From Hornefia porci (lineage in GTDB: Bacteria; Bacillota; Clostridia; Peptostreptococcales; Anaerovoracaceae), in NCBI RefSeq assembly GCF_001940235.1, contig NZ_MJIE01000001.1, positions 682,001-746,000 on the forward strand: 64,000 bases of DNA. The letters run 5' to 3'. The notes under the pieces are model-generated. The model made no database searches and had not been told where the DNA came from. It worked only from the letters and a program-made list of their open reading frames with translations. Within the stretch, counting starts at the first letter, position 1. Each line of letters begins with the position of its first letter. The position numbers and the translations under genes are program-made. Below, in pieces: positions 52,791-62,961 of the stretch.

Positions 52791-52960
52791 TTTTTCCTTC
52801 CTTTCATGTCAGCTTTCTCAACAGCCGTCTGAACAAGCGCCGTGTCTGCGTAATGCGTGCTCCGCAACTGATTCGTGCTCCGCAGCGCTGCCGGCAGATT
52901 TTTACCGGCACCCGTTTGCCGCGCCCGTCAGTCCGACGGGGATGCAACGAGCGAAAACAC

Positions 52961-53072
52961 GGCATATTTTGCGTCTTGTTCATCATCATAATCGGGTATG
53001 CTATGCGAGGTCAATTCATCCGGGAGCATTGTGTTTCATTAGGGCTGACATATATCCGTTCCGGGTCACGGA
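52961..53072 (-). promoter_or_regulatory. Shared 112-bp promoter module, copy 1
   Basis: Nearly identical (4 mismatches) to 56310-56421. On the minus strand it holds TTGACC (53014-53009), an 18-nt spacer and TATGAT (52990-52985), with about 58 conserved bases upstream of the -35. It lies about 170 bp before the 1252-aa surface protein gene. Confidence 0.8.
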
Positions 53073-53134: not shown

Positions 53135-56100
53135 TTATATCTGTTTTCTTTTCTTACCGATCAGGAAGAGAATGAATCCCAATGAAGCAATCATGATTCC
53201 TCCATATAGCAGAAGATTACTGTTGTCTCCCGTATCCGGCGTATTGGCCGGCGTCTTTGGCGTGTCCCTGGTATTCGTAATCACGAACCCCTTCTTGGCG
53301 TCACCATTGATCGCTGTAGTGTAACCGGACACTTTCTCTTCTTTGATGGTGTAGGCAATTTCCTTCCCATCCTTATACTGATCAAGATCTTTGAACGTAT
53401 ATTGCCAGTGATTATCCTTGGACAGCTTCTGTGTATCTATCTTTTTGCCATCCGCGTAGAGATTGACAGTAATGTTGCCTGTCGCGCCGCCAACCCACTT
53501 TTTCGTCACCGGTACAGATACCTTGCCGGAAATAGTATTTGTGATGGTAAAGCCATTTTCAGCTGTACCGGAAATGCCGGTTGTATAACCATCTACTTTC
53601 ACTTCAGCAATTGTGTAAACAATCTCATGGCCATCCGTTTCATCATATTTCGGAAGGTCTTTGAATGTATGCTTCCAGTTTCCGTTCGCTGTCAAGGTGG
53701 CCGTATCTTTCTCAACATTATCCGCCAGAAGTTTCACTTTGACCTGATCGGTTTCCTTGCCGACCCACTGTTTGGTTACCGGCACAGATACCTTTTCCGT
53801 ATTAATGTTCTTTACGGTATATCCGGAAGCTGCATTACCAGTGATTTCCGATTTGTAATTTTCAATAGAATCTTCTTTGATCGTATAGTTGATTTCTTCC
53901 CCATCTTTATACTTCTCAAGATTAGTGAAAGTATGCTGCCAGTTATTTGATTTATTCAGTGTAACAGAATCGACTTCTGTGCCGTCCGCATACAGACGAA
54001 TCTCAGCAGAATCGCCTTCCTTGCCGACCCACGTCTTTGTTACCGGTATCGAAACTTTTCCGGTGATTGTATTGGTTACGGTAAATCCGGTTTCCGCTGT
54101 TCCACAGACGACGCTATTATAACCATCCAATTTGACTTCCTCGATAGTGTAATTGATCTTGTGTCCATCTACGCTGTCGTACTTCGGAAGGTCACTGAAA
54201 CTGCCTTTCCATTGTCCGGCTTCATGCAGGGTAATCGTTTTTCCGGTATCCTTCTTATCTGCAAGAAGTTTTACTGTAACAGAATCTGTTTTCTTTCCCA
54301 CCCATGACTTTTTTACCGGAATGGAAATTTTTTCTACATTGGTGTTAGTGATGGTATAACCGTCTTTCTGAGAACCAGTTACCTTATCTTCATATCCGGC
54401 AGGAACATCTTCTTTGATCGTATATTTGATTTCCTCGCCATTCGTCCGGTACTGCCTCAATCCGTCAAAGCCGTCTGCCCAGCCGTTGGCTGCATCCAAG
54501 GTAATAGCCTTGCCTGTGTCTTCACCATCTGCATAAAGATGTACGGTGACTGCGCCGCCTTCCTTTCCGATCCATTTCTTATTTACCTTGACGGAAATTT
54601 CCTTTGGCTCATTGCTGATGGTCTTAATCGCGCCCTCTGACCCGACCTTGACTTTGATCGGCTCTTTCAGCAGTTTGAATCCATCAGGCGCCGTAACCTC
54701 TGTGATGGTAAAATCACCCTGCGATGCTTCCTGCGAAGTGAATATGCGAGAATAAGTACGCCCGGTAGCATCCGTTGCCGGCAACGTAATTTCCTCGCCG
54801 CCTGGTGTTGTTACCTTAAAAACTGCTCCGGCAAGCATGTTTCCTGTCGACTCATCTACTTTATACAGTACAATCCTATACCCGACATCCAGCGTGATAG
54901 TCCCGCCTTCCGTTATTTTTGAGTTTCTGATGGTCGTGGTGCTGGTTTGCGTGCTGTCTGTGTTGACAGTAAGCTGTGTTTCATCCCCATACACTTCCAC
55001 GGTATTTGCTACTGTCGATCCATCCGCCGGCGCAGTTGTGCTATAAGACAATTGATAGGATGCCGGCTTTCCGTTGGATGCCATCCGGGATGATGCGTTC
55101 AGGATTTTCAGTTCAAAATCCGTATAAGAACTATTGTATTCAATCGAATAGTCCACGCCCTCTGTTAATTCACCTTCTTTATGGAAAGAATACGTGGAAT
55201 CATAATATCCATATATCACTTTCGCGGTTTCGGGGATATATTGCATTGGGGCGTGTTCCTTTGAAATCGAATCCACTACCGTAATGTTGTTATACGAGGC
55301 CTGACGGACATTCACTCTCACATACCAAGGATGTACGTAATTTCCGCTTTTCCCCAACTTCTCCGAAGTGTACGGCCTGTTTTCCAGAACTCCTCCAAAC
55401 TTACTGAAATTCGCTTTCCCGATCGCCTCCGTGTAGTCGGTTGTTCCTTTTTCCTTTACGGTAATTTTATGAGTGATTACATCGGCCGTCTCTGTTGTGT
55501 TGTAGGTCACGGTCTTTTCTGTCATAATTTCAGATGCCGTGAAGTTCACATAGAATGTTCCTTTTAAATCTCTGACCTCATCCGCGCCTGTTTTTTCCAA
55601 GTATTTATCCAGATTCTGTAATGTTACTTTAACCGTTCCGCCCTTTCCTTCTCCGTTCGATGTAACAGTCGCCGCGCCGATCGCAATTCCTGTTTCTTTA
55701 TGTGTAAGAGCAATCGTTCCGTCTTTGACTGTGAATGGTTCTGGGACCGTCAACGTGAAGGTATCTCCATTCTCCAGATCGCCGTTATAGGCACTCAGAT
55801 CAAAATCCGTTTCAAAGCGATAACTGCTTCCCTTGACCAGCTGATAAGTATCATTCGTTTTAGTTACATACCGGCCTTCATTTGTATCCCACAATTTAAT
55901 ATCCGAAATGACTTTTGTCAATTCCTTCGCATTTTTGGCCGGAGTTTTTACTGTCGGGGCTCTTCGTGTTTGATTTCTAAGACGCAGAGCTCCTGATTTT
56001 ATATTATTTTCTGCATCTCCTTCTGTCTCTGCGCTCTGTTGCTGATCATCCTGCACCTTTTCTTTATTCACTTTTACGATTTTCACCTGAGAATTGATCT

Positions 56101-56227
56101 CCTGCGTTACATTCTTTGTTGATGTCGTATTAACATCTTCCGCATAGACAAAAACATTCACTCCCTGGAATGCAATACTGCACACCACCAGAAGAGACAG
56201 CATTACGCCTAACCCTTTCTTCTTCAT
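53135..56227 (-). CDS. Cna B-type repeat surface adhesin
   Basis: About 1030 aa. Signal peptide (MKKKGLGVMLSLLVVCSIAF), an N-terminal adhesive Ig-like region (VISDIKLWDTNEG...), one SpaA-like domain (YKVDESTGNMLAGAVFKVTTPGGE), then five Cna-B repeats, each starting (V/I)xVxKxWVGK and ending GYTITNT-like. The C-terminus TPDTGD, hydrophobic segment, GKKRKQI is an LPxTG-class sorting signal with Thr for Leu. Cna-B and SpaA domains carry isopeptide bonds and stalk adhesins away from the wall. ATG 56227 has AAGGGA about 10 nt upstream. Low-GC compared with the next surface gene. Confidence 0.9.
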   Translation of the reverse strand: MKKKGLGVMLSLLVVCSIAFQGVNVFVYAEDVNTTSTKNVTQEINSQVKIVKVNKEKVQDDQQQSAETEGDAENNIKSGALRLRNQTRRAPTVKTPAKNAKELTKVISDIKLWDTNEGRYVTKTNDTYQLVKGSSYRFETDFDLSAYNGDLENGDTFTLTVPEPFTVKDGTIALTHKETGIAIGAATVTSNGEGKGGTVKVTLQNLDKYLEKTGADEVRDLKGTFYVNFTASEIMTEKTVTYNTTETADVITHKITVKEKGTTDYTEAIGKANFSKFGGVLENRPYTSEKLGKSGNYVHPWYVRVNVRQASYNNITVVDSISKEHAPMQYIPETAKVIYGYYDSTYSFHKEGELTEGVDYSIEYNSSYTDFELKILNASSRMASNGKPASYQLSYSTTAPADGSTVANTVEVYGDETQLTVNTDSTQTSTTTIRNSKITEGGTITLDVGYRIVLYKVDESTGNMLAGAVFKVTTPGGEEITLPATDATGRTYSRIFTSQEASQGDFTITEVTAPDGFKLLKEPIKVKVGSEGAIKTISNEPKEISVKVNKKWIGKEGGAVTVHLYADGEDTGKAITLDAANGWADGFDGLRQYRTNGEEIKYTIKEDVPAGYEDKVTGSQKDGYTITNTNVEKISIPVKKSWVGKKTDSVTVKLLADKKDTGKTITLHEAGQWKGSFSDLPKYDSVDGHKINYTIEEVKLDGYNSVVCGTAETGFTVTNTITGKVSIPVTKTWVGKEGDSAEIRLYADGTEVDSVTLNKSNNWQHTFTNLEKYKDGEEINYTIKEDSIENYKSEITGNAASGYTVKNINTEKVSVPVTKQWVGKETDQVKVKLLADNVEKDTATLTANGNWKHTFKDLPKYDETDGHEIVYTIAEVKVDGYTTGISGTAENGFTITNTISGKVSVPVTKKWVGGATGNITVNLYADGKKIDTQKLSKDNHWQYTFKDLDQYKDGKEIAYTIKEEKVSGYTTAINGDAKKGFVITNTRDTPKTPANTPDTGDNSNLLLYGGIMIASLGFILFLIGKKRKQI

Positions 56228-56309
56228 ATCTTTCGTTCCCTTCATTAAATACTTGATATTGTAAATAGAGACTGTCGCAAAAAGTAGACTTTCTGTTTCA
56301 TATGTACAT

Positions 56310-56421
56310 GGCATATTTTGCGTCTTGTTCTTCATCATAATTGGGTATGCTATGCGAGGTCAATTCTTCCGGGAGCATTGTGTTTCATTAGGGCTGACAT
56401 ATATCCGTTCCGGGCCACGGA
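56310..56421 (-). promoter_or_regulatory. Shared 112-bp promoter module, copy 2
   Basis: Second copy of the module at 52961-53072, same orientation: TTGACC (56363-56358), 18-nt spacer, TATGAT (56339-56334) on the minus strand, with the same conserved upstream block. It lies about 83 bp before the Cna B gene. Confidence 0.8.
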
Positions 56422-56435
56422 ATATGCGGAGCATA

Positions 56436-56466
56436 CAAAAAAGCCCGGGTAATCTCGAGCTTTCTT
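56436..56466 (-). terminator. Terminator of the CARF-sigma operon
   Basis: On the minus strand AAGCTCG (56462-56456) pairs with CGGGCTT (56447-56441, one G-T pair), followed by a T run. It sits directly upstream of the adhesin promoter module. A second inverted repeat, CCGCG/CGCGG, lies nearby at about 56495-56510. Confidence 0.7.
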
Positions 56467-56587
56467 CGCCACTCATTTCGGACAAAACAAAAACCCCCGC
56501 GTGTTCCGCGAGGTCTGTCTTCTGATTGTCGTTCATGTCACCCTTTGTGAAAAAGTGCGACTGAACACACTTCCTCTTCAGGCATTG

Positions 56588-56788
56588 TCAGGGTTTTATA
56601 CTTCTTTCTTGACAGCCCTCTTTAATCAGGGGTCCTATATAATCTAATACTTCCTGTGACAGCTTATCATGCACACGAAGAAATTCCATAATTTCTTCAT
56701 AGGTCATGCTTTCGAAATCGATGGGCTCGTCATCAGCCTCCGGTTCTGGCAATTCTTCCAAACCAATCTCTTCGCCATTTATTAACAT
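56588..56788 (-). CDS. Acidic 66-aa protein, last gene of the CARF-sigma operon
   Basis: Highly acidic (IGLEELPEPEADDEPIDFES) then helical (TYEEIMEFLRVHDKLSQEVLDYI). AGGGGAAAA precedes ATG 56788. It follows the sigma-like gene by 19 bases. An acidic partner of a sigma factor would be a natural guess, but no anti-sigma family is recognised. Confidence 0.6.
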   Translation of the reverse strand: MLINGEEIGLEELPEPEADDEPIDFESMTYEEIMEFLRVHDKLSQEVLDYIGPLIKEGCQERSIKP

Positions 56789-56807
56789 AACGGTTTTCCC
56801 CTTTTTC

Positions 56808-57668
56808 TCAATCCGTTTCTCTTATTTTTCCTATAAAATCCTTTATGGTTCGGCTGATACTGGCCTCATTACGTCCAAATTTCTCAGCAATTTCCCGCTG
56901 CGTCGGCAGCCGCCCGCTCTCAATCCACATCTCCATAACAGACTCGCTTATAAACGAGAATCTTTCTGTCATACGTCCTGTCAGCAGTTCACAAATGCGG
57001 ATTGTAATCAGATCCGACACAATGGGCTTCTGTCGCGCTTGCAGCGAGCAAAACGCGTCTTCTATTCTGTCCAGAACAGACTCTATTTCTTCTTCACTTT
57101 CAAATCTCATGCTTATGTCTTCATCTGCGGGGATCTGATCCCATATACTCTGAGCATCACCTTCATCACTGATACATGTGTCTCCACCTACCGTCGTCCC
57201 ACCAAGTTTTTCCAGTTCAATTATACGTTCAGGCGGCAGTTCCATCGCTTCAGACAATCTCTCGTACAGTTCCGCTGAGGATATATTTGAGCCTAGCTGT
57301 TCTGCAAGTCTGGTGTATTTCCGTACTGCCCGTCGATCCGCCTCAGTTACTTTGATACCTCTGTATTTATCATCCTGAGCTTTCACACCCACTATGTGTG
57401 AGTACTCCTGCTTCCATGCAGCATTGAAATAATGAAGAAACACGCCTTTATCCGGGCTGAAATTGTTTATGCATCTGGTCGCAGTCTCTGTGATTTCACA
57501 TCCATACGGCTCATAGTCTTTTTCATTAATTGAGAGCAGATAACAATACAGATTTTCAACCATTCTATAGGATTCCCGCTTAAAAGCTGTATACTCTGTT
57601 TCCCTGTCAATAGAGAACAGCGGCGAGTTCATAATCAGCTGCTCATATTTTTTCTTATCATAATACAT
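56808..57668 (-). CDS. Divergent sigma-70-like factor
   Basis: 286 aa. Region-2-like segment ITETATRCINNFSPDKGVFLHYFNAAWKQEYSH (compare the usual A...FDP.KG..F..YA..WI), region-3-like helices with ELYERLSEAMELPPERIIELEKL followed by a D-E-G-D...I-P-A-D-E stretch, and a C-terminal helix-turn-helix LPTQREIAEKFGRNEASISRTIKDF (region 4). The similarity is weak but the order is right. AGGTG lies 5 nt before ATG 57668. It follows the CARF-like gene by 13 bases. Alternatively an HTH regulator that only resembles sigma. Confidence 0.65.
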   Translation of the reverse strand: MYYDKKKYEQLIMNSPLFSIDRETEYTAFKRESYRMVENLYCYLLSINEKDYEPYGCEITETATRCINNFSPDKGVFLHYFNAAWKQEYSHIVGVKAQDDKYRGIKVTEADRRAVRKYTRLAEQLGSNISSAELYERLSEAMELPPERIIELEKLGGTTVGGDTCISDEGDAQSIWDQIPADEDISMRFESEEEIESVLDRIEDAFCSLQARQKPIVSDLITIRICELLTGRMTERFSFISESVMEMWIESGRLPTQREIAEKFGRNEASISRTIKDFIGKIRETD

Positions 57669-57681
57669 ACGGACACCTATG

Positions 57682-58299
57682 TTACAAAGACAGAAGGGAC
57701 TTCAACATAGACCTGGCTTTTTCCGGCTCAGTGCAGCGGATTGTATTTGTAATAGATCCGAGGCAATACAGCGGGACCATATCACAGATTTTTGTATCAA
57801 CTGCCTTCCCGTCAACGAAGCTTGCCTGCCCATATACAATGCTATCAACCGTACACTCCAGAAACTTCTCAGCGAAATTAAGAGCTGTAAAAATCACAAT
57901 CGGCAGATCCTTGGGACCATAAGTTATATCCGCAAAGATATGCGAACCAGTCGATAAGCCGTCCACAATTCTGCCCATCAGTCGCTCGTGGACAGAGCGC
58001 GCCTCGTCAAAATCTGTATCAATTACTGTATATTTGACAGCAGCGCCAATCTCAGAATTGGCCTCCTCAAGCTCCTGTTTAAAAAGTTCAGTATTTCTGC
58101 TGTAATGACCATAGCGATCCTTTTTTACGAGAATCAGCACCTTCAGCTCATCCTCCGGCTTCATGTTTTTTTCAAGGAATGCACAGATCGGATAGCGCAC
58201 CTTCTTATCTGCCACAGGAAGGAACTTGTCATCGCTGGTGTACAGCACCGGATCAACATTTTCCTTCATAGGAATACTGCAAATAATTGTTTTCTTCAT
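57682..58299 (-). CDS. Stand-alone CARF-like (TM1812/Csx1-type) protein
   Basis: 205 aa. HIFADITYGPKDLPIVIFTALNFAEKF matches the DxTHG motif region of CRISPR-associated TM1812 proteins (D-I-T-Y-G here, Tyr for His), and VDSIVYGQASF...DMVPLYCLGSI matches the following strand and turn. The start KTIICSIPM is a Rossmann-like strand. CARF domains sense cyclic oligoadenylates or related nucleotides. No HEPN or other effector domain follows. No cas gene or array is in the window. GAGAGGT precedes ATG 58299. Confidence 0.65.
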   Translation of the reverse strand: MKKTIICSIPMKENVDPVLYTSDDKFLPVADKKVRYPICAFLEKNMKPEDELKVLILVKKDRYGHYSRNTELFKQELEEANSEIGAAVKYTVIDTDFDEARSVHERLMGRIVDGLSTGSHIFADITYGPKDLPIVIFTALNFAEKFLECTVDSIVYGQASFVDGKAVDTKICDMVPLYCLGSITNTIRCTEPEKARSMLKSLLSL

Positions 58300-58311
58300 T
58301 CTAAGTACCTC

Positions 58312-58623
58312 TCACACGCATCTATTCATGCTGAAATTACAGTATCTGTTTTTCTTCTTTGTCTTCTCCAGAACTTCTATCCCATATTCCTTTTCGATGT
58401 ATTTTACATACATCGGAATTTTGGACATCGTACGTTCTATCGCACTGTCTTTATGGGCTCTTGAATAGTTAATGGATTCGTTCAGCGATACCCCTCTCGA
58501 ATAATATTCCTGGACGCCTTTGCGGTAATTCTGACTGAAAAGGTAATACTCATAGCCATCATTAACCATAAAGAATGAATGCACACCGCGCTCAGTTTGC
58601 TCACAGTAAATCGTTGTCATCAT
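58312..58623 (-). CDS. 103-aa protein, first gene of the CARF-sigma operon
   Basis: Contains EQTERGVHSFFMVNDGYEYYLFSQNYRKGVQEYYSRGVSL and a basic C-terminal part ending KKKNRYCNFSMNRCV. AAGGGTG lies 5-6 nt before ATG 58623. Its stop is 12 bases from the CARF-like gene, so all four genes form one tight operon. I do not recognise the family. The basic helical region (AHKDSAIERTMSKIP) could bind nucleic acid. Confidence 0.6.
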   Translation of the reverse strand: MMTTIYCEQTERGVHSFFMVNDGYEYYLFSQNYRKGVQEYYSRGVSLNESINYSRAHKDSAIERTMSKIPMYVKYIEKEYGIEVLEKTKKKNRYCNFSMNRCV

Positions 58624-58934
58624 AGAATCACCCTTTCTTTCAAGGCACTACTTTTGTTCCTATTCTTATATAGTGACAAAAACAACGCGGTTTAACATTC
58701 TCACGGTTATTTTTCGGAATTATTTCGCCAATGTCATTCAGAGCACAACCAGGTATTTCACTGTTCCTGCAAGCACTCCGATACGAACATCCTCTGTTTT
58801 CCCAATTTCTCTTTGCGAAACAGTTGCTCCGTTTCGTATCATCTTCACTAATTTCATGAACTGTCACAGGTCTGTCCTGTAAGCCTGTCGCAGCATTACC
58901 CATCCTCCCGTCAGTGAACGAAATCCGTCATAAT
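58624..58934. other. Non-coding stretch upstream of the CARF-sigma operon
   Basis: No convincing gene. On the minus strand a TATAAG preceded by weak -35 candidates lies about 35 nt upstream of the operon's first gene and may be its promoter. Open frames here lack ribosome-binding sites and protein-like composition. Confidence 0.4.
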
Positions 58935-59102
58935 TCATTTCATAATCGGGATATTTTCTCTTATCTTCCGTTCAATCTCTCTTCTGTCTTCCCAGTACTC
59001 TTCTTTGACCCAGTCGGGAGCATCATCCCTTAGTTCTCCTATATAGGGTACCTTGAATTCTCCAATCAACCATAAGGGCCATTCTTTATCAAGAAATCTC
59101 AC
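58935..59102 (-). CDS. 55-aa hypothetical protein overlapping its upstream gene
   Basis: GTG 59102, with GGAGGCGG 6 nt upstream, starts VRFLDKEWPLWLIGEFKVPY; the frame ends ...ENIPIMK and is rich in Trp and charged residues. It overlaps the end of the 65-aa gene by 14 bases in another frame. The tight, overlapping pair of tiny genes recalls toxin-antitoxin organisation, but no family is recognised. Confidence 0.45.
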   Translation of the reverse strand: MRFLDKEWPLWLIGEFKVPYIGELRDDAPDWVKEEYWEDRREIERKIRENIPIMK

Positions 59103-59286
59103 GCTTTACCGCCTCCTCATACATTCTTTCAACCTCTTCCATCATCAGTTTAACATTTTCAGAAGTTCTACTTTTTCGTATACCGTAAGCATCATGAAAT
59201 GCCTCTGCAAACAACTCAGATTCATTAGTATCGGCATATATCGCTTGAATTATACTCAAAAAAATAGGTCTTTCAATGTTTTTCAT
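59089..59286 (-). CDS. 65-aa hypothetical protein
   Basis: MKNIERPIFLSIIQAIYADTNES..., acidic and helical, ending EEVERMYEEAVKREIS. AAGGAAA lies just before ATG 59286. It may be the upstream partner of the overlapping 55-aa gene. It begins next to the IS66 remnant, which may have cut its promoter region. Confidence 0.45.
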   Translation of the reverse strand: MKNIERPIFLSIIQAIYADTNESELFAEAFHDAYGIRKSRTSENVKLMMEEVERMYEEAVKREIS

Positions 59287-59324
59287 TATTTCCTTATGCG
59301 ATTTTTTGAAATCGATTTTTCAAA

Positions 59325-59753
59325 GTGCGTGGGGAAGATATCCGGGTATACCCTCTTCCTCAATCGGCGATTAACCGTTATTGCCGTTTAAAGTACTTAC
59401 TGAGTAGACACTATTTACGAACATTCCTGAATGATCCGCGGGTTCCTCCGGATAACAACCTGGACGAACAGGCAATCAGGCCGTTTTGTGGTGGAAAGAA
59501 AAACCGGAAGCTGATTGACACCGTCAGCGGCACTCAGGCAAGTGCAATCCTGTACAGCATCGTAGAAACCGCCAAAGCAAACGACCTGAATATCTGCCAA
59601 TATTTCAAGTTCCTTTTAACTGAGATTCCAAAGCACATGGACGATATGAATCTCGATTTCCGGTTCCGTTGCTGCCATGGTCCAAAAAACTCCCAGAAGA
59701 ATGCCGGAAGGAAAGAACCAAGTCAAAGTAACAGAAACGCCGTCAAGTCATGA
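59325..59753 (+). pseudogene. IS66-family transposase, C-terminal fragment
   Basis: From about 59373 the frame gives LRTFLNDPRVPPDNNLDEQAIRPF, then LIDTVSGTQASAILYSIVETAKAND and FLLTEIPKHMDD, the characteristic end of IS66 TnpC. The N-terminal three quarters and the IS ends are absent, so it is an inactive relic. It marks this stretch as a site of past insertion. Confidence 0.85.
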
Positions 59754-59986
59754 ACCTGGTGGCGATATTTTTTCTATAACTCACTCTCGGGTAAGAATTT
59801 TTTTGAGCCAAGATACAGGCTATTTGCCGTTTACAGGAATCCCGCCCGGCGGGCGCGTCCTGCGACGGCGGCAGACATCAAATGAAAACGCGCCCCGGTG
59901 TGCAGAGGCGCCGATAATCCGATAATATTCTGTCATTGTCCCTTAGGATATTGCGCTTTTCATACATCCGCATTCCTGATTTCACA

Positions 59987-60265
59987 TTATATCTCTATCA
60001 GAATAAGCCAGAGGGCATTGGCAAGTACAAAGAGCTGGTTGATGCGTACATCTTTTTTCACAAGAATCCGCCATTCCATCACTGTCATCCAGATAAAGGC
60101 CGTGGACAAAACAAAAAAATATACTCCCCACACATTAGAACTGACATATTTACCTGCGAAAATACAGAAAAACGCAGCGAGCAGCTCAAAGATATAATAT
60201 GTCATCACATAACCGGGAATAAGCCGCAATTTTTGGATGACAGAGTTCACACTATTCTTTTCCAT
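59987..60265 (-). CDS. Small membrane protein (92 aa)
   Basis: About three hydrophobic segments (YYIFELLAAFFCIFAG, WGVYFFVLSTAFIWMTVM, LFVLANALWLILIEI) separated by the charged EWRILVKKDVRINQ. ATG 60265 has AGGAGG 8-9 nt upstream; ATG 60274 is too close to it. It appears to be a paralogue of the next gene. Function unknown. Confidence 0.6.
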   Translation of the reverse strand: MEKNSVNSVIQKLRLIPGYVMTYYIFELLAAFFCIFAGKYVSSNVWGVYFFVLSTAFIWMTVMEWRILVKKDVRINQLFVLANALWLILIEI

Positions 60266-60285
60266 AGTAGCCATTCCTCCTGCCG

Positions 60286-60576
60286 TTAAAAAAATTCAGC
60301 CGAACCAAAGACAAAAAAGAAAAACAGGATGTTAATCAGAAACAAGTCGGGTGCAATCCTCCCATCATGCCTGACATATCGGCGATATACCATGAACAGG
60401 AACCATGAAACGGCGATTCCCGTTGTTATGATGAATATCTCCATATGGCTCTGCCGCCAAGTTCTCCCAAAGAACCAGATTAATGTATATGAAACCTCAT
60501 ACAGGAGATAAATCCATACATAGAAAGGGTGATTCCGAATATGTAAATTTCTTTTTTGCTTTTGTTTACTTCTCAT
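60286..60576 (-). CDS. Small membrane protein (96 aa)
   Basis: A basic N-terminus (RSKQKQKRNLHIRNHPF) and about three hydrophobic segments (WIYLLYEVSYTLIWFFG, FIITTGIAVSWFLFMVY, LFLINILFFFFVFGS) with a charged RRYVRHDGR loop, the same layout as the gene 20 bases downstream. GGGGGAA precedes the start. Function unknown. Confidence 0.6.
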   Translation of the reverse strand: MRSKQKQKRNLHIRNHPFYVWIYLLYEVSYTLIWFFGRTWRQSHMEIFIITTGIAVSWFLFMVYRRYVRHDGRIAPDLFLINILFFFFVFGSAEFF

Positions 60577-60973
60577 ATGTAAAGCATTCCCCCTGCATCA
60601 GAATTTAATATGTCCCCAAATTTGTGATTTTTCCTGTTACAGGTCAATAGCGCAAAACAACTGTTTATAGTTTACCATACAAAATTCGGTCTTGGTAGTT
60701 TTTTCACAGCTCTTATGCAAACCGGGCATTTTATTACCCACTGATATTCGGGTACGCCATATCGCGTATAGCGGAATAATTGATTTCCCTAGTTTTTTTT
60801 GACCTTTTCCTGATCAAAGCCATCATTTTATCTTTGTTCACAGCACCCCAGTATGTCATCCGCTTTCTCTTTAACTCTCATTGCCAAAAGGCTTGCAATT
60901 TGAAGTGTTATCAATAAGGAAATATAGAAAAAACACCGAATCCGCTGCGAATGCTCGAATCCGATGTTTTAAC
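60577..60973. other. Intergenic stretch without a gene
   Basis: AT-rich, no protein-like frame on either strand. Near 60930-60972 the direct repeat CGAATCCG occurs twice, followed leftward by a T-rich tract, possibly the transcription end of tRNA-Glu. Confidence 0.4.
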
Positions 60974-61048
60974 TGGTATCGCCTAAGGGAGTCGAACCCT
61001 TGATTCAGCCGTGAGAGGGCTGCGTCTTGACCACTTGACCAAGGCGAC
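60974..61048 (-). tRNA. tRNA-Glu (CTC)
   Basis: 75 nt including CCA. Acceptor GTCGCCT pairs with AGGCGAT, anticodon loop CTCTCAC gives CTC (reads GAG), T arm AGGGTTCGACTCCCT. Confidence 0.93.
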
Positions 61049-61067
61049 ATATTTTCGTTTGCTCGTC

Positions 61068-61096
61068 TTGAAAACTGACGAATATTATTATATACT
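61068..61096 (+). promoter_or_regulatory. Promoter of thrC
   Basis: TTGAAA (61068-61073), an exact 17-nt spacer and TATACT (61091-61096), about 50 nt before the thrC start. Its -10 overlaps the -10 of the opposing tRNA-Glu promoter. Confidence 0.7.
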
Positions 61097-61115
61097 GTGA
61101 ATTGGCTATTGTAAA
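61087..61115 (-). promoter_or_regulatory. Promoter of tRNA-Glu
   Basis: On the minus strand TTTACA (61115-61110), a 17-nt spacer and TATAAT (61092-61087), about 40 nt before the tRNA 5' end. Confidence 0.75.
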
Positions 61116-61148
61116 GCAAAATTTTTATAGAACAGGAGATTTTTTTCT

Positions 61149-62633
61149 ATGATGAAATATATCAGCACCCGGGGTATGGACAGCAGGCTGACAGGAGCGC
61201 AGGCAATCATTCAGGGAATCGCGCCGGATAAGGGGCTTTACGTTCCTGAGGAAATCCCCGCACTTCCCTTTGTTCCCGGAGAAATGACGGACCGTTCCTA
61301 TCAGGAAATCGCGAAGGCTGTCATCGGCACATTCTTCGACGACTACACCGCAGAGGAAATGCAGCGCTGCATCGACGGCGCCTACGATGAGAAGTTCGAA
61401 GAGAAGGAAATCGTTCCGATTACCGAGGCCGGAGGCGCGTTCTTCCTCGAGCTCTACCACGGAAAGACCGCAGCTTTCAAGGACATGGCTTTGTCGATCC
61501 TTCCATATCTTCTGACCACTGCCACAAAAAAAGAACACGAGGATAAAAAAATCTGCATTCTGACGGCCACCTCCGGAGATACCGGAAAAGCGGCGCTGGA
61601 GGGTTTCGCGGACGTGCCGGGGACGGAGATTATCGTGTTCTTCCCGAATCAGGGCGTGAGCCAGGTGCAGGAACGCCAGATGATCACACAGGAAGGCTCC
61701 AACACCCATGTGTTCGCGATCGAAGGCAATTTTGACGACGCCCAGACCGGCGTAAAGAAAATCTTCAATGACCGGAATTTCGCAGTCAGACTGGCGGATA
61801 TGGGCTGCAGACTTTCCTCCGCGAATTCCATCAATATCGGACGGCTTGTTCCGCAGGTCGCCTATTACGTTTACGGTTACATTCAGCTCATCGCCCGCGG
61901 TGTGATCCGGGACGGCGACCCGATCAACATCGTCGTTCCCACCGGCAACTTCGGCAACATTCTGGCAGCTTATTATGCTAAGCAGATGGGTCTTCCGGTG
62001 GCGAAGCTGATCTGCGCCTCCAACAAAAATAAAGTTCTGACGGATTTCATCTCCACCGGCGTGTACGATACAAACCGGGACTTTTATCTGACGAATTCTC
62101 CGTCCATGGACATTCTCATCTCCAGCAATCTGGAACGCCTGCTCTACCATCTGAGCGAGGGCAAAGGGCCGGAGATCCGCGATCTGATGGAGCAGCTGGA
62201 GTCCGCGAAGCATTATGAGGTTTCGGCCGCCATCCGCAGCGGACTGAAGGACTTCTACGGCGGTTTTGCAGATGTGGAGGCGACGAACAAAACCATCGGC
62301 GAGATGTATCGGAACAACGGGTACCTGATCGATACCCATACGGCGGTAGCCTACAAAGTCTATTCAGATTACCGCGAGACCACGGGTGACCGGACTCCGA
62401 CGCTGATTGCATCTACCGCCAGCGCCTATAAATTCGCGGAAAGCGTCGCGAAGTCCATCGGTCTTCCCGAACAGCCCGACGGATTCCGCTACATTGAGGA
62501 GGTTGCCTCCGGAACCGGCGTGCGGGTGCCCCGCGGACTGAAGGACCTCGACAAAAAAGAAGTTCGTCACAGCGGTGTCATCGAAATCAGCCAGATGGAA
62601 GACACGGTAGCTGAAGCGCTCCGGACGCACTGA
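61149..62633 (+). CDS. thrC: Threonine synthase
   Basis: 494 aa, fold-type II PLP enzyme of the longer (yeast/E. coli-like) class. The N-terminal TRGMDSRLTGAQAIIQGIAPDKGLYVPE, the PLP lysine in YHGKTAAFKDMALSIL, LTATSGDTGKAALEGF and PTGNFGNILAAYYAKQMGLP are diagnostic. It converts O-phosphohomoserine to threonine. AGGAGA lies upstream of ATG 61149; ATG 61152 is an alternative. It stands alone between two tRNA genes. Confidence 0.96.
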   Translation: MMKYISTRGMDSRLTGAQAIIQGIAPDKGLYVPEEIPALPFVPGEMTDRSYQEIAKAVIGTFFDDYTAEEMQRCIDGAYDEKFEEKEIVPITEAGGAFFLELYHGKTAAFKDMALSILPYLLTTATKKEHEDKKICILTATSGDTGKAALEGFADVPGTEIIVFFPNQGVSQVQERQMITQEGSNTHVFAIEGNFDDAQTGVKKIFNDRNFAVRLADMGCRLSSANSINIGRLVPQVAYYVYGYIQLIARGVIRDGDPINIVVPTGNFGNILAAYYAKQMGLPVAKLICASNKNKVLTDFISTGVYDTNRDFYLTNSPSMDILISSNLERLLYHLSEGKGPEIRDLMEQLESAKHYEVSAAIRSGLKDFYGGFADVEATNKTIGEMYRNNGYLIDTHTAVAYKVYSDYRETTGDRTPTLIASTASAYKFAESVAKSIGLPEQPDGFRYIEEVASGTGVRVPRGLKDLDKKEVRHSGVIEISQMEDTVAEALRTH

Positions 62634-62873: not shown

Positions 62874-62961
62874 GGAGGATTGACCGAGTGGCTAAGGAGC
62901 TCGCCTGGAAAGCGAGTAGGGTGTAACAGCCTCGTGGGTTCGAGTCCCATGTCCTCCGCCA
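62874..62961 (+). tRNA. tRNA-Ser (GGA)
   Basis: 88 nt including CCA. Acceptor GGAGGAT pairs with GTCCTCC, anticodon in CTGGAAA is GGA, long variable arm present, T arm GTGGGTTCGAGTCCCAT. Confidence 0.95.

What the first reader, a model, noticed from the sequence alone, without database searches (positions are those of the whole stretch)
56588..58623. Operon pairing a stand-alone CARF-like protein with a divergent sigma factor
Four tightly spaced genes (gaps of 12, 13 and 19 bases) encode a 103-aa unknown, a 205-aa protein with a TM1812/Csx1-like DITYG motif region, a 286-aa protein laid out like sigma-70 regions 2-3-4, and a 66-aa acidic protein. CARF domains are known as sensors of cyclic oligoadenylates in type III CRISPR systems, usually fused to an effector; here there is no effector domain and no cas gene nearby. 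Inference: a nucleotide signal might gate an alternative sigma factor, i.e. a transcriptional arm of a defence or stress response.
Basis: partly seen in the sequence, partly recalled or inferred. Interest (0 to 1): 0.9.

Follow-up and report, generated by a model that had tools for sequence, protein, structure and literature searches.

The report
CARF sensor paired with sigma factor
A gut bacterium carries a small sensor protein of the kind that detects antiviral alarm nucleotides, encoded right beside an unusual gene-switching sigma factor, and the same two-gene pair recurs in CRISPR and other antiviral gene clusters, which suggests an alarm signal that turns genes on directly.

Summary
In detail: four genes, gaps 12, 13 and 19 bases. 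The 205-aa protein is a CARF protein (PADLOC CARF2--CARF 2.4e-73; its confident model's best structural matches are CARF proteins). The 286-aa protein is a divergent sigma-70-type factor. The pair, not the four-gene set, is conserved. Of 13 CARF-only loci examined, 12 have a same-strand gene starting -17 to +38 bases downstream; 10 of those 12 partners link to sigma factors by some test, two of them only weakly. Seven lie in apparent type III CRISPR clusters, five with Cas10 confirmed on the same contig; two others precede VWA, phosphatase and kinase genes, one within a BREX island. The window's genome shows no Cas10, SMODS or mCpol match, so its ligand source is unknown. Best reading: a CARF dimer directly gates a dedicated sigma factor in response to a cyclic nucleotide, without the protease used by Calp or CASP. 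Binding, ligand and regulon are untested. The open-library searches showed no such pair, but three key papers were not held.

The parts
57682..58299 (-). stand-alone CARF protein (CARF2--CARF, TM1812-like), 205 aa
56808..57668 (-). divergent sigma-70-type factor with regions 2, 3 and 4, 286 aa
   Evidence: TIGR02937 3.7e-6; profile A2 against PDB SigA 1.1e-5; the 50 listed Foldseek rows are RNA polymerase or sigma entries, best E 4.2e-5, whole-chain TM only 0.20-0.24; C-terminal domain on sigma region 4 at 1.6-2.1 A over 61-65 residues
58312..58623 (-). 103-aa protein of unknown fold, first gene of the operon
   Evidence: no significant family match; 100% identical in the sister species (L002/L004) and 68% over 92 residues in L007
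56588..56788 (-). 66-aa acidic protein, last gene of the operon
   Evidence: no family match; counterpart in the sister species is 81 aa and 34% identical over 68 columns, while the CARF and sigma proteins are 97.6% identical
58655..58687 (-). conserved upstream element CGYTGTN5TCRCTATATN3ARTAGGAACA, candidate promoter or operator of the operon
   Evidence: upstream of the 103-aa gene in both Hornefia genomes and in L007; found once each in 3 of 4 genomes or records searched, no other site at up to 3 mismatches, reversed-pattern control 0
56495..56513 (-). terminator-like hairpin after the operon
   Evidence: pattern scan only; number found equals chance expectation

Best explanation
The operon encodes a two-protein, protease-free switch. 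The CARF protein (inferred homodimer) senses a cyclic oligonucleotide made during infection or stress, and through direct contact controls the sigma factor encoded next to it. The version I think most likely: without ligand the CARF dimer holds the sigma factor (anti-sigma role); ligand binding releases it, and the sigma factor redirects RNA polymerase to defence promoters, perhaps its own operon included. In the type III CRISPR loci Cas10 would supply the ligand. In the window's host the ligand source is not known. Shown here: CARF fold, sigma-like sequence and domains, tight gene pairing across distant loci, defence context of most loci. Inferred: ligand binding, dimer, physical contact, direction of control, target genes.
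For: CARF fold with T126, G128, K130 of the DxTxGxK motif invariant in the 10 aligned members (five of them close relatives) and D124 nearly so. Sigma identity. Pairing: 12 of 13 CARF-only loci have a downstream same-strand gene at -17 to +38 bases. 29 of 120 listed CARF clusters share their longest-contig length with one of 120 listed sigma clusters, 0.7 expected. Distances of the two proteins across 31 pairs correlate, r=0.85, 0 of 9999 permutations reach it. Type III partners relate to sigma: at E<=0.1, 7 of 21 members of the L020 family match PRK09047 sigma, best 2.2e-5, 3 of 21 TIGR02937, 3 of 21 the type III-E sigma model, all below cut-offs; 13 of the 16 families matched are sigma models; L074 and L055 match the L020 profile. 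Cas10 lies on the same contig within about 4 kb in 5 loci. Precedents for nucleotide or CRISPR control of sigma factors: PMC8325347 (abstract), PMC12751052 (abstract), PMC10028731 (passages).
Against: No binding, complex or promoter data. No Cas10, SMODS or mCpol match in the window's genome. One CARF-only locus (L075) has no sigma partner; its next gene reads by eye as a GGDEF-type protein 213 bases on. Two partners (L019, L057) have no statistical link to sigma factors; those of L018 and L056 rest on weak ranks only. Family scans of single partners gave no sigma match for L008, L018, L019 or L057, and L056's best match is an unrelated effector model, 6.8e-4. The Pfam 'sigma region 3' hit of the window protein falls on residues 241-276, the C-terminal helix-turn-helix. 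Correlated distances are also expected from plain co-inheritance. The upstream element occurs nowhere else in the genomes searched, so no regulon is visible.
Confidence: 0.5

Rival explanations
1. Nucleotide-armed anti-sigma: ligand binding makes the CARF dimer clamp the sigma factor, as c-di-GMP arms RsiG against WhiG, so that loss of a constant signal (for example by a phage sponge) releases the sigma factor.
For: Same gene pairing evidence; RsiG-c-di-GMP-WhiG is a described precedent (PMC8325347, abstract), and two WhiG-RsiG entries are among the 50 structural rows of the sigma model.
Against: In the type III loci Cas10 makes its product on target recognition (abstracts), which favours release or activation on ligand; no constant nucleotide source (mCpol) was found, with a model of unproven sensitivity.
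Confidence: 0.15
2. The CARF protein is a ring nuclease or sponge that tunes the nucleotide level; the sigma factor is simply co-transcribed and works on its own.
Against: The pairing persists in genomes or records with no Cas10 match, where there is no known signal to degrade; the gene immediately downstream is sigma-like in 10 of 13 loci.
Confidence: 0.15
3. In the window's host the operon is a decaying orphan: a module from a defence island, cut off from its ligand source and effectors.
For: No homologue of the L007 VWA protein in the two Hornefia genomes, no Cas10, SMODS or mCpol match in G000; patchy presence (1 of 16 other same-genus genomes); sigma gene Ka/Ks 0.47 on 11 differences.
Against: All four frames are open; the CARF gene shows Ka/Ks 0.12 (16 differences) and the 103-aa gene no amino-acid change (1 difference) against the sister species; gene order is kept there.
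Confidence: 0.15
4. The 286-aa protein is not a working sigma factor but a DNA-binding regulator built from sigma-like helices, with CARF as its co-repressor.
For: Sigma models score below their curated cut-offs; an insertion precedes the last helix-turn-helix (by eye); model pTM only 0.41; whole-chain TM-scores 0.20-0.24.
Against: The profile aligns to SigA in order from region 2 into region 4, and the 50 listed Foldseek rows are RNA polymerase or sigma entries.
Confidence: 0.05

Closest known systems
Calp system (CalpL SAVED-Lon protease, CalpT anti-sigma, CalpS sigma)
   Same: Type III CRISPR nucleotide signal leading to a sigma factor and a transcriptional response (PMC12751052, abstract).
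   Different: Here the sensor is a CARF protein, not SAVED, with no protease domain, and no separate anti-sigma gene was identified; the pair also occurs where no Cas10 was found.
Type III-E CASP (Csx29, Csx30, CASP-sigma)
   Same: CRISPR-linked sigma factor under an inhibitor (PMC10028731, passages); 3 of 21 members of the L020 partner family match its sigma model below cut-off, best 2.5e-4.
   Different: CASP works by protease cleavage and is RNA-activated (PMC10028731, passages); the passages seen name no CARF protein in the switch.
RsiG-(c-di-GMP)-WhiG
   Same: Cyclic nucleotide directly sets an anti-sigma/sigma complex (PMC8325347, abstract).
   Different: RsiG is a coiled coil binding c-di-GMP, not a CARF protein; it controls sporulation or pili, not defence (PMC8325347, abstract).
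Csa3 and RtcR (CARF transcription regulators)
   Same: CARF domain linked to transcription (PMC4012209, passages; Csa3 structures among the matches).
   Different: There CARF is fused to a winged HTH or to a sigma-54 activator; here it is a separate protein beside a sigma-70-type factor.
PADLOC CARF2--CARF (stand-alone CARF2)
   Same: The window protein is a member (E=2.4e-73).
   Different: The library entry names the CARF protein only; no model hit names a CARF-sigma pair.

Membership tests
CARF superfamily (CARF2) | sequence match to CARF2 models over the full length | tested here: met
   PDLC01820 E=2.4e-73, residues 1-204 of 205
CARF superfamily (CARF2) | CARF fold | tested here: met
CARF superfamily (CARF2) | binds a cyclic oligonucleotide as a dimer | not testable with these tools
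   motif residues T126, G128, K130 invariant in 10 aligned members; no binding data
TIGR02221 / TM1812 equivalog | score over the curated cut-off | tested here: not met
   41 bits against 76.25
sigma-70 family | regions 2, 3 and 4 in order | tested here: met
sigma-70 family | curated family cut-off | tested here: not met
   TIGR02937 26.7 against 42.9 bits; Pfam Sigma70_r3 18 against 25.3 bits
sigma-70 family | binds core RNA polymerase and directs promoter-specific transcription | not testable with these tools
   none
type III CRISPR ancillary gene | lies beside cas10 and type III genes | tested here: not met
   no PF22335 match in G000, G002, G476, W01, W02 (the control search also rang in E. 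coli, so the model is not strictly Cas10-only); met by related pairs in G447, G367, G039, G825, G717
Calp system | SAVED-Lon protease sensor | tested here: not met
   the sensor is a 205-aa CARF protein with no further domain
TerY-P triad | VWA, PP2C phosphatase and kinase genes together | tested here: not met
   no homologue of the L007 VWA protein in G000 or G002 (phosphatase and kinase not searched). The three genes follow the pair in L005 (Pfam); in L007 the VWA is 78% identical to that of L005 and the other two were read by eye

The most novel reading that the evidence does not exclude
A family of defence switches in which a stand-alone CARF dimer directly gates its own dedicated sigma factor: native to type III CRISPR loci (III-D where typed), reused by BREX and VWA-phosphatase-kinase defence islands, and kept in hosts without Cas10, where an as yet unknown enzyme makes the signal.
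Probability: 0.45. Interest if true: 0.85.

Novelty: new variant of a known kind. Interest (0 to 1): 0.7.

Why it matters
Type III CRISPR nucleotide signals are known mainly for switching on toxic effectors. A direct sensor-sigma pair would give such signals a simple, reversible route to reprogramme transcription, without proteolysis, and would link CRISPR, BREX and kinase-based defence through one regulator. The pair is small and open to ordinary biochemical tests, and the members without Cas10 point to an unknown source of CARF ligands.

Tried and rejected
Rejected as explanation: a conserved four-gene operon. Not supported: spread on phages. Four pattern-based scans of viral contigs found no relative; the single 'phage' hit (MT835511) is a metagenome scaffold with BREX and other defence genes, so I treat it as bacterial. 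Four plasmid searches gave one record only, Treponema pTS2.

Led nowhere: profile comparison of the window sigma family with L020 and L019, with L018 (a 26-column match) and with the L020 family (probability 16%); PDB sequence searches with two type III partners, 0 matches, with the L020 family (best SigI6, 0.087) and with the CARF profile (one CARF chain, 0.0055); a regulon from the upstream element; Pfam on 8 partners (sigma models among the listed matches for L005 and, at 0.14, L020; none for the other six).

Rows dropped before the count of 13 CARF-only loci. Genomes whose match lay in an open frame of 305 aa or more were taken as fused CARF proteins and not examined: 6 of 9 matched genomes, 33 of 38, 2 of 6. 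G727 (a 215-aa frame with a stop inside) was not examined. L006 was dropped: a 45-residue match. L001, L002, L003, L004, L009, L010, L026-L028, L058, L069, L070 are shorter or repeated stretches of loci already counted. Only the 120 listed of 545 CARF proteins and 120 of 214 sigma proteins were used; A1 holds 28 of those CARF proteins, A2 32 of those sigma proteins, A4 20 of the 22.

Decoy test in full (11 partners, 396 decoy ORFs, 25 rows shown per profile). Window-type profile A2: L056, L055, L018 outrank all decoys (E 0.044-0.1); L019 does not; L020, L057, L074 are not among the rows shown. L020-family profile A4: L074 (1.2e-12) and L055 (2.2e-4) are clear; L018, L007, L008 outrank all decoys weakly; L056, the window protein and L019 do not; L005 and L057 are not shown.

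Absence of SMODS, mCpol and Cas10 rests on one Pfam model each; in the control genomes SMODS was over its cut-off in 2 of 14, mCpol in none. For the Treponema case only the plasmid was searched. Gaps use start codons as the ORF rule calls them.

Literature limits: one search listed 20 of 3,657 papers, 20 of 56, 12 of 15, 6 of 16; some searches listed all 11, 7, 22 and 7; one search found 0. Most listed papers were not opened.

Full report
WHAT IS THERE. The four minus-strand genes exist at the stated coordinates with gaps of 12, 13 and 19 bases. The window lies in a 2.8-Mb genome. Its closest named relative found is Hornefia butyriciproducens, CARF protein 98% identical; this appears to be G002, whose contig has the same length, 268,749. 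Gene order around the operon is kept there (95.8% DNA identity over window 56306-62626). The genes are patchy: 3 of 99 genomes, own included, have a CARF match, and of 16 other same-genus genomes only G002.

THE PAIR IS THE UNIT. In 12 of 13 a same-strand gene follows at -17 to +38 bases. L075 is the exception. Of the 12 partners: four are the window protein and its direct relatives (window, G002, L005, L007); L008 is 26% identical over 255 residues (5e-15); L020's family matches sigma models at E<=0.1 (7 of 21 members to PRK09047, best 2.2e-5; 13 of 16 families matched are sigma models); L074 and L055 match the L020 profile (1.2e-12 and 2.2e-4 among 407 sequences); L018 and L056 only outrank all 396 decoys, weakly; L019 and L057 have no statistical support. 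Against: NCBIfam gave no match for L008, L018, L019 or L057, and an unrelated effector model (6.8e-4) for L056. In the large protein collection, 29 of 120 listed CARF clusters share their longest-contig length with one of 120 listed sigma clusters; length-shifted controls give 0.7. Over 31 pairs (29 so matched, the window and L007) the distance matrices correlate at r=0.85, 0 of 9999 permutations as high; co-inheritance alone could give this.

WHERE PAIRS OCCUR. (a) Type III CRISPR, seven loci. Cas10 (PF22335, over cut-off) lies on the pair's contig within about 4 kb in G447, G367, G039, G825 and G717. That search's control also rang in E. coli, so the model is not strictly Cas10-only; the proteins beside L018 and L019 fit PADLOC Cas10d best (2.4e-100, 1.1e-118). 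In G859 Cas10 is on another contig, and RAMP-like and CARF-HEPN-like genes, read by eye, lie beside the pair. In L074 a Cas10-like gene follows, read by eye. (b) Islands where no Cas10 was found: in L005 the pair is followed by VWA, PP2C and kinase genes; in L007 by a VWA gene (78% identical), phosphatase and kinase genes (by eye) and an MkoA-like helicase, with BrxP, BrxC, PglZ, BrxL, a DndA/SspA-like gene and a WYL protein upstream. A VWA-phosphatase-kinase triad, TerY-P, is described as antiviral (PMC7699616, passage). (c) Hornefia: the pair with the 103-aa gene before and a small acidic gene after, no homologue of the L007 VWA protein. The Treponema plasmid pair has no triad identified beside it.

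THE LIGAND PROBLEM. The window's genome has no match for Cas10 palm2, SMODS or mCpol; G002 has one SMODS match below cut-off. It does have a Cas1 gene 1.8 Mb away in what reads by eye as a type I-E operon, beside an array of ten repeats at 60-61-base spacing. So either an unknown enzyme or an invading element supplies the signal, or the Hornefia copy is an orphan.

UPSTREAM ELEMENT. A 33-base element before the 103-aa gene is shared by both Hornefia genomes and L007. It occurs once in each, is absent from Flavonifractor An112, and has no other site at up to 3 mismatches. It may be the operon's own promoter. An 87-aa ORF overlaps it in Hornefia, and by eye L007 encodes a similar short peptide there, so a coding origin is not excluded.

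MECHANISM. Most likely a nucleotide-gated sigma factor: the CARF dimer contacts the sigma factor, and ligand changes that contact. Direction (release on ligand) is a guess favoured by the type III context. Calp and CASP reach a sigma factor through proteolysis (PMC12751052 abstract; PMC10028731 passages); RsiG shows direct nucleotide control of an anti-sigma (PMC8325347 abstract). CARF has been tied to sigma-54 activators (RtcR) and to WYL proteins in defence loci (PMC4012209 passages).

NOVELTY. Library listings for CARF with sigma-factor terms and for stand-alone CARF and TM1812, and passages of PMC11229360, PMC12409355 and PMC12839542, showed no CARF-sigma pair; two searches listed only part of their papers, and most papers were not opened. 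Makarova 2020, Shmakov 2018 and Shah 2019 (recalled as the key censuses, sought by recalled DOIs) are not held and may mention it. I therefore call it a new variant of a known kind.

Noticed in passing
window 52957-53072 and 56306-56421: A 116-base direct repeat (95.7% identical) flanks a 1067-aa surface-protein-like gene (53135-56338); in the sister genome G002 the two flanks meet at a single copy and the gene is missing at this place, as if lost or gained by recombination between the repeats.
   Followed up: partly
window 56588-56788 and L021 11996-12241: The 66-aa acidic protein is only 34% identical to its 81-aa counterpart in the sister species, while the other three proteins of the operon are 97.6-100% identical: a fast-evolving or recombined small protein.
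   Followed up: partly
L007 (MT835511.1): A scaffold deposited as 'Bacteriophage sp.' carries a BREX gene set (BrxP, BrxC, PglZ, BrxL) and kinase-type defence genes; it looks like a bacterial defence island, not a phage.
   Followed up: partly
L075 8872-9441: A CARF-only gene without a sigma partner, followed 213 bases on by what reads as a GGDEF-type protein; possibly another nucleotide link.
   Followed up: no
L064 2130-12250 (window's own genome, contig C1): A CRISPR array of ten repeats beside genes that read as a type I-E cas operon.
   Followed up: partly
L057 9782-11710: Between a CARF-only gene and a Cas10-like gene lies a 642-aa protein with no Pfam or NCBIfam match; not evidently a sigma factor.
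   Followed up: partly
L076 12511-20423 (Treponema plasmid pTS2): The plasmid that carries the CARF-sigma pair also has an annotated type I-C CRISPR-Cas operon about 140 kb away.
   Followed up: no
window 60977-61048 and 62874-62958: Two tRNA genes lie upstream of the operon, possible integration sites.
   Followed up: no
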